From an uncultured Bacteroidia bacterium (GTDB lineage Bacteria > Bacteroidota > Bacteroidia > Bacteroidales > ML635J-15): DNA of 64,000 nt. Of the stretch, positions 11,281 to 14,738 are shown in pieces. The stretch spans positions 13,036 to 77,035 of the forward strand of contig CACYQN010000009.1 in assembly GCA_902776565.1 (NCBI GenBank). Reading direction: 5' to 3'. Positions within the stretch are counted from its first letter, which is position 1; every line of letters begins with the position of its first letter. A program made the translations under genes and the position numbers. The notes under the pieces were generated by a model. It searched no databases. It saw nothing but the letters and a program-made list of their open reading frames with translations, and was not told the origin of the DNA.

Positions 11281-12288
11281 ATGGAAGAAGTACAGAAACT
11301 TACAAGAGAAGACTTTCAGACCGCAGGACCGGTAAAATGGTGTGCAGGTTGTGGTAGTTATTCAATTTTGGCTGCAGTGCAGAATGCTCTTCCGCAGATT
11401 GGCGTTCCAAAGGAAAAGATAGTGTTCGTATCAGGTATTGGCTGTTCGTCACGATTCCCGTACTACATGAAGACTTACGGCTTCCATACATTGCACGGAA
11501 GAGGTGCTGCTATTGCATCTGGTCTTAAGTCGGCTCGTCCAGACCTCAATGTTTGGCTTGCTACCGGCGACGGCGACTCGATGGCTATCGGTGGAAACCA
11601 TTTCATTCACCTGATTCGCAGAAACATCGACATCAATGTGTTGGTATTCAACAATAAGATTTACGGTCTTACAAAGGGACAGTATTCTCCTACAACTCCT
11701 TACGGTTCGATTACAAAGTCGTCACCCGATGGAACAATCGAGAATCCTTTCAAGCCGGGCGAACTTGTGATTGGTGCAGAAGGCAACTTCTTCGCAAGGG
11801 TTATCGACAAGGAGCCGCGCAACCTCGAAAAGACCTTTATCGCAGCAAATGCTCACAAGGGTGCTTCGATTGTTGAAGTTTTGCAGAACTGCGTGATTTT
11901 CAACGATAAGATTCACGAAAGCATTATTGGTAAGGATGTTCGCGACGACAATGTAGTAATGCTCGAACACGGCAAGCCAATGATTTTCGGCAAGGAACGC
12001 GACAAAGGTCTTGTTCTTGACGGTGCTGACCTCAAGGTTGTTAAGATTGGAGAAAACGGCATAACCGAAAAGGATATCCTCGTTCACGATATGACAACCA
12101 AGAATCCGAGCATCCACTACTTGCTCGCCAAGATGACTTACCCGCTGGCAATCGGTGTTATCCGTTGCGTTGACGATGCAACCTACGAAACCAAGTTGCA
12201 GGAGCAGGTTGACAATGCAGTTGCAACCACCAAAATCAAGACTGTTGACCAGTTGCTTCACAGCGGACAGATTTTCGAGATAAAATAA
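11281..12288 (+). CDS. korB: 2-oxoglutarate:ferredoxin oxidoreductase, beta subunit
   Basis: Thiamine-diphosphate-binding beta subunit of the enzyme encoded with korA. Residues 18-25 give CAGCGSYS, and SGIGCSSRFPYY lies near 50; these supply cysteines typical of the family. HTLHGRGAAIASGLK and the ThDP/Mg signature GDGDSMAIGGNHFIHLIRRN follow, then NNKIYGLTKGQYSPTT. The 335 residues are the usual length. It starts 5 bp after korA and is followed by a strong terminator, so the two genes form a complete transcription unit. No ferredoxin-like delta subunit is present, as is common for two-subunit KorAB enzymes. Confidence 0.94.
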   Translation: MEEVQKLTREDFQTAGPVKWCAGCGSYSILAAVQNALPQIGVPKEKIVFVSGIGCSSRFPYYMKTYGFHTLHGRGAAIASGLKSARPDLNVWLATGDGDSMAIGGNHFIHLIRRNIDINVLVFNNKIYGLTKGQYSPTTPYGSITKSSPDGTIENPFKPGELVIGAEGNFFARVIDKEPRNLEKTFIAANAHKGASIVEVLQNCVIFNDKIHESIIGKDVRDDNVVMLEHGKPMIFGKERDKGLVLDGADLKVVKIGENGITEKDILVHDMTTKNPSIHYLLAKMTYPLAIGVIRCVDDATYETKLQEQVDNAVATTKIKTVDQLLHSGQIFEIK

Positions 12289-12471: not shown

Positions 12472-13095
12472 TATCGCTTTTTTGCAAAAGTTCTTTGACA
12501 TTCTGACCAAAATCCGCGCCTATTTTAGGTGTGGTTTCAAGGGAAAAAGGTACACTTTTTGGGAGAAAATTTCATAACGAAATGTTAAAATTGATATCTA
12601 AAGTCTTATTGCACAACTACTTACAAATTTTGCCCTCGCAGTGCATCTTCCATTAAAACAAGGATTAAGACTTTTGCGAATTCAAAACTCATGAACTTAT
12701 AGTCTATTAGCTCGCAGTGCATCTTCCATTAAAACAAGGATTAAGACTACTCATAGATTAATCGTTTAATGATTTGAGCATTCCTCGCAGCGCATCTTCC
12801 ACTAAAACAAGGATTAAGACGAAAGGTCTTGTTCCAGTTAGACGTTCGGCAATGTTCTCGCAGCGCATCTTCCACTAAAACAAGGATTAAGACAACTTAA
12901 TAGGGAGTCCCGGATGGAAAGTAAAAACCTCGCAGTGCATCTTCCATTAAAACAAGGATTAAGACAACTCCATATCAGATAAAACTACCAGGAATTCTGG
13001 CAGTTCACTCGCAGTGCATCTTCCACTAAAACAAGGATTAAGACCTCTTGAATCCCCGATCATTCACATAATATGGACGACTCGCAGTGCATCTT

Positions 13096-13210
13096 AGCAA
13101 TGCTGATTTTCTGTTAGAGAATGTTGGCATCACCTCAGCAATAATTGAACAAGTTCACCATTGCTTTCGGTTCGCACAACATTTTATTGCATTCGGTTTG
13201 CACTAAAATT
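13096..13210. repeat. Insert 1 inside CRISPR repeat R7 (115 bp)
   Basis: It splits R7 after base 15 (GCATCTT) and the repeat resumes with CCACTAAAAC. It starts AGCAATGCTGATTTTCTG and ends GCACTAAAATT. Relative to insert 2 it lacks about 35 internal bases. AGCAATG at its start is the reverse complement of CATTGCT about 70 bases on. Confidence 0.85.
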
Positions 13211-13443
13211 CCACTAAAACAAGGATTAAGACATTTATTTGTTTGTATTTAAAATTATTTTATCTCGCAGCGCATCTTCCACTAAAACAAGGATTAAGAC
13301 TGCTATAAGTGCAATAATTACATTCTTTTTCATTACTCGCAGTGCATCTTCCACTAAAACAAGGATTAAGACACAAATGAGTTAAGCCCATTCACATTGA
13401 TTGATACTATTCTCGCAGCGCATCTTCCACTAAAACAAGGATT

Positions 13444-13529
13444 TTACAAAGGCTTAAAGGCTTGCAGGCTCACAGGCTTGAAGTCTTTTGGCTGTTAGCC
13501 TTTTAGCCTTTTCGACTGTTAGCCTCTTT
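13444..13529. repeat. AGCC-rich tail segment between the two CRISPR modules
   Basis: It follows the truncated R10 and contains repeated AGGCTT and TTAGCCTTTT motifs. It is homologous to the segment behind R21 (14546-14610), sharing GGCTTGAAG, CTTTTGGCT and TTAGCCTTTTCGAC in the same order, with an extra stretch of about 25 bases here. Confidence 0.75.
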
Positions 13530-13537
13530 TGCATCTT

Positions 13538-13687
13538 AGCAATGCTGATTTTCTGTTAGAGAATGTTGGCATCACCTCAGCAATAATTGAACAAGTTCAC
13601 CATTGCTTTCGGTTCGCACAACATTTTATTTAGGCTGCACCTCAGCAAATCAAGTTCGCTTGTTTGCATTCGGTTTGCACTAAAATT
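13538..13687. repeat. Insert 2 at the head of CRISPR module B (150 bp)
   Basis: Preceded by a repeat remnant TGCATCTT and followed by the 22-nt 3' part of a repeat (13688-13709). It is the longest copy and is made of two related units: GGCATCACCTCAGCAA... ending TTCGGTTCGCAC, and GGCTGCACCTCAGCAA... ending TTCGGTTTGCAC, separated by a short AT linker. Confidence 0.85.
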
Positions 13688-14439
13688 CCACTAAAACAAG
13701 GATTAAGACTCATGCTTACAGTTATCGATATAAAATTTTTCTTTAATTCTCGCAGTGCATCTTCCACTAAAACAAGGATTAAGACCCCCACACATATTCA
13801 GTGCCTTCCTTAACTTCATTTTCGCTCGCAGCGCATCTTCCACTAAAACAAGGATTAAGACTTTACGTAAACTTTCATTTTTAAAAATATTAAAATTATT
13901 CAACTCGCAGTGCATCTTCCATTAAAACAAGGATTAAGACCTCTCGAAGATTCTATCATCAGCTTCTTGTAGTAGTTTACTCGCAGTGCATCTTCCACTA
14001 AAACAAGGATTAAGACAATAATACCCCAAGTGTACGAATAACATCCGCTAAAATCTCGCAGTGCATCTTCCACTAAAACAAGGATTAAGACCTTTCTAAA
14101 TGTGCTTTTGTGTAAGCCATAACTATCTCGCAGTGCATCTTCCACTAAAACAAGGATTAAGACTTCATTAGGACTCTGTTAACCCTGTCTTTACTAGAAC
14201 TCGCAGTGCATCTTCCACTAAAACAAGGATTAAGACTTCTTTGAATCGAGAGTGTAGTACTTTTGATACTGAACTCGCAGCGCATCTTCCACTAAAACAA
14301 GGATTAAGACTTTTCTTTACCTATGATAAGGTAAGTAGTATCCTCGGTCTCGCAGTGCATCTTCCACTAAAACAAGGATTAAGACGTATCATCTGACGGA
14401 TTTAACAATATGTATGGATCCAGGCTCGCAGTGCATCTT

Positions 14440-14528
14440 AGCTTCTCTGATTTTCTGTTAGAGAATGTTGGCATCACCTCAGCAATAATTGAACAAGTTC
14501 ACCATTACTTTCGGTTTGCTCAAAAATC
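14440..14528. repeat. Insert 3 inside the terminal CRISPR repeat R21 (89 bp)
   Basis: It splits R21 at the same place as insert 1. It starts AGCTTCTCTGATTTTCTG and ends TTCGGTTTGC plus TCAAAAATC, so it has a single unit, probably contracted from two. The truncated end of R21 (to GGATT) follows. Confidence 0.85.
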
Positions 14529-14545
14529 CCACTAAAACAAGGATT

Positions 14546-14738
14546 TTAAAAGGCTTGAAGCCTTTTGGCTTTTAGCCTTTTAGCCTTTTCGACAGCTAGC
14601 CCCTTTAAAGGCGAACAGTCTTACTGTCGTTTGGGCTGTTAGACTGACAGACTGGTCTTCCGCTAGGCTTTTAGCCCTGTTGGCGGAATATTGTCAGAAT
14701 GAAAGAGTTGAGTGTGCTAACAAAAATTCTCTGTAATA
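14546..14738. other. Array tail and gene-free flank
   Basis: The first 65 bases repeat the tail segment seen at 13444-13529. The rest contains several small inverted repeats (CCGC...GCGG, GGCTTTTAGCC) but no gene. Confidence 0.6.

What the first reader, a model, noticed from the sequence alone, without database searches (positions are those of the whole stretch)
13096..14528. Three related inserts at the same internal position of CRISPR repeats
Three segments of 115, 150 and 89 bp share the core CTGATTTTCTGTTAGAGAAT and lie at the same point of the 37-bp repeat (after GCATCTT, before CCACTAAAAC). R7 and R21 are split exactly; in the third case only the tail of the 5' half is left. CRISPR repeats are normally kept intact. 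Possible explanations: a sequence-specific small element targeting the repeat, or one insertion copied by recombination and then trimmed. The inserts carry microhomology to the repeat at both ends (GCATCTT and CACTAAAA).
Basis: seen in the sequence. Interest (0 to 1): 0.78.

Follow-up and report, generated by a model that had tools for sequence, protein, structure and literature searches.

The report
Mobile DNA hairpins inside CRISPR repeats
Three CRISPR repeats in this bacterium are split at one point by copies of a short DNA hairpin whose relatives are scattered through many Bacteroidales genomes; it likely jumped into one repeat once and was then probably copied and trimmed by recombination, and related hairpins also split repeats of an unrelated CRISPR system in the same genome and in a sister species.

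Summary
In detail: inserts of 115, 150 and 89 bp stand at one internal point of the repeat. They are whole or trimmed copies of a ~70-nt DNA hairpin element, not leader or spacer DNA. The outer stem covaries with almost no G-T pairs, which points to DNA rather than RNA.

The simplest form (71 nt) sits in the leader-proximal repeat of a sister array on contig C18. Insert 2 is that element with a second copy nested inside it; inserts 1 and 3 are deletion derivatives. One landing, one nested landing, then copying and trimming explains the three.

A separate, genus-type copy splits the last two repeats of the genome's type II-C array. Related hairpins split three consecutive II-C repeats in sister species G023 and survive as a relic in G022. 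Here all 7 exact-core copies lie in CRISPR arrays; a diverged subfamily (7 weaker hits) does not.

Repeat-specific targeting is not shown: the landing points share only a preceding TT. The mobilising enzyme is unknown; RAYT linkage was tested and not found. Functional consequences are untested.

The parts
12486..12634 (+). leader of the 37-nt-repeat array
   Evidence: aligned with the left flanks of the arrays on C18 and C27
12635..13448 (+). array block A: intact repeats at 12635, 12711, 12784, 12857, 12929, 13008, 13264, 13336, 13412 plus the split repeat 13081-13232; the repeat at 13412 runs into the trailer
13096..13210 (+). insert 1 (115 bp): 5' piece of element E1, nested element E2, 3' piece of E1
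13119..13186 (+). large hairpin of E2 in insert 1 (model R1, 60.0 bits)
   Evidence: G000:C9:26154-26221
13449..13530 (+). trailer-like sequence in mid-array, homologous to the array tails at 14543 onward, on C18 and on C27
13538..13687 (+). insert 2 (150 bp): E1 with E2 nested in its 5' arm
13561..13628 (+). large hairpin of E2 in insert 2 (60.0 bits)
13627..13689 (+). large hairpin of E1 in insert 2 (67.8 bits)
13749..14385 (+). array block B: nine intact repeats at 13749, 13825, 13904, 13980, 14055, 14127, 14200, 14274, 14349
14440..14528 (+). insert 3 (89 bp): 5' part of E1 and E2 fused to the 3' end of E1 by an internal deletion
14463..14530 (+). fused hairpin in insert 3 (44.6 bits)
14529..14680 (+). 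3' half of the terminal repeat running into the array trailer

Best explanation
The three inserts are copies of one ~70-nt DNA hairpin element of a family found in many Bacteroidales genomes, which likely landed once in a CRISPR repeat, likely received a second copy inside itself, and was then probably multiplied and trimmed by recombination between repeats and arrays. Shown: the family, its conserved core, its covarying DNA-type outer stem, TT at the 3' end in 112 of 116 copies, TT just before a small 5' hairpin where that hairpin is clear, and intact neighbouring repeats as the empty site. Inferred: the order of events (E1 into GCATCTT^CCAC; E2 into E1 after GATTT; deletions giving inserts 1 and 3) and mobilisation in trans, most likely by a transposase that acts on single-stranded hairpins (HUH/Y1 kind), which I could not identify. 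Inferred too: the insert is tolerated, mostly at array ends, because it leaves the 3' part of the 37-nt repeat with its presumed 8-nt crRNA tag ATTAAGAC whole (tag rule recalled).
For: Outer stem over 112 distinct copies: 724 Watson-Crick, 8 G-T, 52 other of 784 cells. Alignment of 45 copies chosen for diversity out of 79: 106 cells changed on both sides against a shuffled mean of 29.4, 0 of 500 shuffles reaching it, and 19-27 when partners are slid. Edges: 27 of 29 copies with a small hairpin of at least 4 bp ending at -13 have TT just before it; TT at +8,+9 in 112 of 116. The C18 leader-proximal repeat carries the simple 71-nt form, ending where the repeat resumes. Alignment of the four forms shows nesting and internal deletions. 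Among the copies held, the E1 core (41 nt) is closest to a Muribaculaceae copy, E3 of the II-C array to copies of its own genus. II-C repeats are split in G000 (2) and G023 (3), with a relic in G022.
Against: No transposase is linked: Y1-like frames were found in 2 of 130 element loci, about 2 kb or more away, and none of 9 PF01797-hit loci in G000 has the element (best 9.2 bits). A clear small hairpin is present in only 29 of 112 copies (47 at 3 bp), and a neighbouring register gives 24; in the C18 copy it is weak. Two of five covariation measures (pairs changed on both sides; further pair types) do not exceed shuffles. Single-strand folding of the inserts is modest: z -1.48, -0.84, +0.18 for the C18 form and inserts 1 and 3; -2.15 and -2.58 for II-C copies. 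The strict core is patchy: 3 of 149 genomes of the relatives sample. No strain pair with and without the insert was compared. The order of events rests on four sequences. Assembly error inside the C9 array is not excluded.
Confidence: 0.72

Rival explanations
1. A sequence-specific element that seeks out CRISPR repeats and hit this array three times independently.
For: All 7 exact-core copies in this genome lie in CRISPR arrays; two unrelated repeat types are hit in the same genome, and the II-C repeat also in G023, with a relic in G022.
Against: The three C9 inserts share a nested second element and derived junctions, so they are not independent. My detector found no array at 119 stretches from other genomes. 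Seven weaker, diverged hits in the same genome lie outside arrays. The landing points share only TT.
Confidence: 0.12
2. The element was carried in with the arrays by horizontal transfer, so its confinement to arrays here is a founder effect and not a preference. This can be true together with the best explanation.
For: Among copies held, E1 resembles a Muribaculaceae copy more than any copy found in its own genus (core score 37 against 27); three arrays with near-identical leaders lie on different contigs.
Against: E3 in the II-C array is of genus type; no plasmid match for the leader region and no viral match for the repeat.
Confidence: 0.3
3. The inserts are assembly joins of repeats and intergenic sequence.
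For: The genome is a 31-contig draft and inserts 1 and 2 share a long identical stretch.
Against: The same insertion point occurs on C18; II-C repeats are split on C6 and in another genome; the five spacers beside split 37-nt repeats measure 31-39 nt.
Confidence: 0.05
4. The hairpin was kept for a function, for example as an array boundary, transcription stop or cap, and persists at array ends because it is useful.
For: By my count 8 of 9 insert-bearing repeats sit at or next to the end of an array or array block (C18 first; C9 inserts 2 and 3; C6 last two; G023 three); one G023 copy has compensating changes in both arms.
Against: Insert 1 is internal. Weaker selection at array ends would give the same pattern. 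Elsewhere the element has no single gene context: next gene on the same strand 64 times, opposite 31 times, inside a predicted ORF 17 of 126 copies.
Confidence: 0.12

Closest known systems
REP sequences linked to TnpA_REP (RAYT), subclass 2.6 / RAYT group 5 of Bacteroidetes (PMC6006769: section 25 and passages read)
   Same: Short dispersed DNA hairpins without genes; Bacteroidetes; that paper reports 'atypical secondary structures' flanking subclass 2.6 genes with copies elsewhere in the genome (its figure not seen).
   Different: No GT[AG]G foot in the base counts; no such gene flanked by this element in the loci tested; a covarying outer stem around a fixed core.
PATEs, palindrome-associated elements related to IS605 (Haloquadratum, PMC3119063, passages read)
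   Same: Non-coding, palindromes near the ends, no long target duplication, one mobile element inside another.
   Different: No parent IS identified here; an archaeal case, sequences not compared.
REPs inserted into palindromes (PMC3733652, passages read)
   Same: Small palindromic repeats that sit inside other palindromic repeats.
   Different: The targets described there are other palindromes, not CRISPR repeats, in the passages that I saw.
PINSR, Prevotella intermedia/nigrescens repeat (PMC4755523, passages read)
   Same: Dispersed non-coding repeat in Bacteroidales.
   Different: 188 bp, lineage-restricted, described as lacking terminal inverted repeats; its consensus letters were not seen.

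Membership tests
REP (RAYT-associated) | short imperfect palindrome, many copies, mostly extragenic | tested here: met
   17 of 126 copies fell inside a predicted ORF
REP (RAYT-associated) | copies flank a tnpA_REP gene | tested here: not met
   0 of 9 PF01797-hit loci in G000; 2 of 130 element loci hold a Y1-like frame, about 2 kb or more away
REP (RAYT-associated) | GT[AG]G tetranucleotide at the 5' foot | tested here: not met
   position-wise base counts of 116 copies; subclass 2.6 is itself described as atypical
PATE / IS200-IS605 derivative | palindromes close to both ends, no terminal inverted repeats, no target duplication | tested here: inconclusive
   large hairpin, TT at the 3' edge, small 5' hairpin clear in 29 of 112 copies; E2 and the II-C copies can be read with 4-5 bp T-rich duplications
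PATE / IS200-IS605 derivative | ends shared with a parent IS coding a Y1 transposase | not tested
   no parent IS was searched for by its ends
Structured RNA family | match to a curated RNA family | tested here: not met
   only a tRNA in the window at gathering scores
Structured RNA family | covariation with G-U pairs tolerated | tested here: not met
   8 G-T among 60 non-Watson-Crick cells, about what random mismatches would give
CRISPR leader or spacer of another repeat type | homologous to a leader, or a unit of 30-40 nt between repeats | tested here: not met
   the leader is identified and different; inserts lie inside repeats

The most novel reading that the evidence does not exclude
CRISPR adaptation itself has been copying a mobile hairpin: in the type II-C arrays of two species, consecutive repeats with a ~70-80-nt hairpin in the middle are separated by ordinary ~30-nt spacers, so Cas1-Cas2 duplicated enlarged repeats of about 116-128 nt, reading the repeat's ends and not its length, and the array served as an amplifier for a mobile element.
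Probability: 0.28. Interest if true: 0.82.

Novelty: new variant of a known kind. Interest (0 to 1): 0.55.

Why it matters
CRISPR repeats are thought to be held constant by function and by the way they are copied. Here a mobile hairpin splits repeats of two unrelated systems, persists in sister species, and sits in consecutive repeats with normal spacers. If such repeats were copied during spacer uptake, that would be natural evidence that the integrase reads repeat ends or a short ruler. For Streptococcus II-A, PMC6895254 (passages and section 20 read) reports that single-base insertions upstream of a ruler near the far end shift the second integration site by one base, with lower efficiency and some aberrant sites; a 70-nt insert would be a far stronger case. 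I found no name for the element family, but my literature look was narrow (see full report).

Tried and rejected
Leader or foreign-repeat piece: rejected. Rfam RNA: no match for it. PINSR: different length and description. Link to RAYT genes: not supported, though a decayed RAYT-like gene lies upstream of the C18 and C27 leaders. Idea that the outer arms are copied from the landing site: fits E1 (CACTAAAA) but not E2, nor G000's II-C copy; dropped. Idea that E3 of G000 and the G023 copies are simply one insertion by descent: arms and flanks agree, inner parts differ (49 of 70 columns for one pair; the closest inner matches are intergenic copies of the genus); left open. Plasmid look-up of the leader: no match. 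The split repeat against phages and plasmids gave one weak partial match each (E 0.08 and 0.9), not followed. The repeat in viral contigs: none. Order-wide pattern for split II-C repeats: 1 of 393 genomes, G000 itself (G023 was not in that sample and the pattern is strict).

Full report
Check of the observation. The window holds a CRISPR array of a 37-nt repeat (CTCGCAGTGCATCTTCCAYTAAAACAAGGATTAAGAC) from 12635 to 14550. Insert 1 (13096-13210, 115 bp), insert 2 (13538-13687, 150 bp) and insert 3 (14440-14528, 89 bp) stand at the same internal point. Eighteen other repeats in the locus match the repeat form used. The sequence before insert 2 is a copy of the trailer that follows the array end here, on C18 and on C27; I read the locus as two array blocks in tandem.

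The rest of the genome. The same repeat occurs in arrays on C18 and C27 (50 pattern matches in the three arrays, up to 2 mismatches), each with the same leader on the left. On C18 the leader-proximal repeat itself is split, at the same point, by a 71-nt insert. A CARF-HEPN Csx1-like gene lies upstream of the C27 array, so the 37-nt repeat probably belongs to a type III system; the only Cas1 found in the genome is the type II one on C9.

A second CRISPR type. Contig C6 begins with a type II-C array (47-nt repeat). Its two last repeats are split by inserts of 80 bp and about 80 bp with the same core. The repeats that one search detected as intact, 38 on C9 next to cas2 and 12 on C6, all show 0 mismatches to the consensus. 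That C9 and C6 hold one array is my inference from the contig starts. The split repeats would then lie at the end away from the cas genes, and the outermost one is degenerate.

What the insert is. It gave 11 stretches in viral contigs. The strict pattern is patchy: 3 of 149 genomes in a sample of the genus, family and order. In 112 distinct copies with enough flank, seven positions on the 5' side (-11 to -5) pair with seven on the 3' side (+2 to +8): 724 of 784 cells Watson-Crick, 8 G-T, 52 other. On 45 copies picked for diversity out of 79, six outer pairs change on both sides, 106 cells in the whole structure against 29.4 in shuffles and 19-27 when slid; two other measures, the number of pairs changed on both sides (7 against 6.4) and further pair types (21 against 20.7), do not exceed the shuffles. 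G-T cells are no commoner among failures than random mismatches would be, so I read this as a DNA hairpin.

Edges. A small hairpin of at least 4 bp ends at position -13 in 29 of the 112 copies, and in 27 of these TT stands just before it; other registers give 3 to 24 such hairpins and 0 to 6 TT cases. So the small hairpin is not clear in most copies, but where it is, the edge is sharp. Positions +8,+9 are TT in 112 of 116 copies. The C18 insert fits both edges: ATCTT | AGCTTCACT GA, outer stem, core, outer stem, TT | CCACTAAAAC; its own small hairpin is weak (2 pairs, not in the fold), while inserts 1 and 2 have AGC-AAT-GCT there. The CRISPR repeat is thus the empty site.

History of the three inserts. 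Aligned with the C18 form (E1), insert 2 is E1 with a second element (E2) inside its 5' arm; insert 1 has lost the 5' half of the E1 core; insert 3 has lost what lay between the two 3' half-cores. One landing, one nested landing, copying between repeats and two deletions explain all four. The order and the copying step (recombination between arrays, or repeat duplication) are inferred.

How exclusive is it to arrays? In this genome the exact core pattern has 7 matches and all 7 lie in CRISPR arrays, carried by six split repeats. A covariance model (R1) gives the same seven as the top hits (44.6-79.3 bits) and seven weaker ones (25.5-36.5 bits) of a diverged subfamily outside arrays; two more hits at 19.9 and 17.8 bits look like noise. 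Only 150 of 2187 first-look candidates were scored, so misses are possible. For the 119 stretches from other genomes my detector (a 22-mer at least three times at 50-95 bp spacing within 400 bp) found no array; the one flagged stretch, L120, is the element in tandem with itself. Among 26 genomes of the genus, 85 rows came back. I inspected 43 loci stretches; the rows left unread score 33.2 bits or less. Besides loci of G000 and G023, the detector flagged L244 (G007), where a palindromic 20-mer recurs beside a copy; I saw no regular repeat-spacer pattern there.

Sister species. G023 has three consecutive type II-C repeats split by related hairpins at the cas-distal end of its array, followed by fillers of about 31, 28 and 30 nt, and 15 intact repeats come after. 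The second copy has TGTTCGG/CGAACA where the others have TGTTTGG/CAAACA. G022 keeps one isolated relic with the ends of a II-C repeat, and its genome has no match to the strict intact-repeat pattern. G000's II-C insert shares arms and flanks with these, but its inner part is closest to intergenic copies of the genus, so common descent with exchange, or a second hit, remain open. E1 is closest to a Muribaculaceae copy among those held (2 differences in 41 core bases). On that ground I count at least two independent landings in CRISPR repeats, one per repeat type.

Mechanism. Most likely a hairpin-recognising single-strand transposase acted in trans; this is a prediction. G000 has nine PF01797 matches. 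Three of them carry NH.H and YIH motifs like those that PMC6006769 lists for Bacteroidetes TnpA_REP subclass 2.6, but none of the nine is near this element. A decayed RAYT-like frame upstream of the C27 array matches REP_Tyr_transpos at 24.1 bits, below the cut-off of 80.

Consequence. In the 37-nt repeat the insert leaves the last 22 nt whole; in the II-C repeat it lies about 19 nt from the leader-distal end if the leader is at cas2 (not shown). PMC6895254 (passages and section 20 read) shows for a II-A system that the second integration site is set by a ruler near the far end, and that a single inserted base upstream shifts the site by one, with reduced efficiency and aberrant sites in cells. 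By that logic an enlarged repeat could be copied whole, which two and three consecutive split repeats with ordinary spacers suggest. Gene conversion between repeats is the rival. PMC8092290 (outline read) has a section on a VI-B array using II-C Cas1 in trans, which bears on the single Cas1 here.

Literature. Nine searches of the open library turned up no paper, among the listings and passages that I saw, that names this element or reports such split repeats. The lists were partial: 15 of 146,566 papers and 10 of 45, the latter on unrelated subjects by title. Subscription papers were not covered, so absence from print is not claimed.

Noticed in passing
L080 5844-6330 (contig C27) and L079 4660-4900 (C18): Decayed RAYT-like transposase frame a few hundred bases upstream of two of the three array leaders; upstream of the array in the window stands the gene at 11281-12288 instead.
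   Followed up: partly
genome G000: One Cas1 match (type II, C9:3886-4587) for a II-C array and three arrays of an unrelated 37-nt repeat; possible adaptation in trans.
   Followed up: no
window 12672-12710 and L080 6762-6799: A spacer of the C9 array and one of the C27 array share 31 nt at an offset: overlapping protospacers.
   Followed up: no
G000:C9:12929-12990 (just left of the window) and six other places: Diverged second subfamily of the hairpin, in several copies next to a GCGATACGGAACGGGGAGCG-like flank.
   Followed up: partly
window 13449-13530 and 14543-14650: Array trailers consist of a dispersed AGGCTT/AGCCTTTT text; 52 rows of similarity in the genome at E up to 10.
   Followed up: no
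many of L108-L226: The 5' edge of many element copies falls right at a TAnnTTTGC sequence, which resembles the Bacteroidetes -7 promoter box (recalled); the element may often sit at transcription starts. Not counted.
   Followed up: no
G000 C9:1-120 and C6:1-105: The II-C array seems to be broken between two contig starts, perhaps by an insertion sequence.
   Followed up: no
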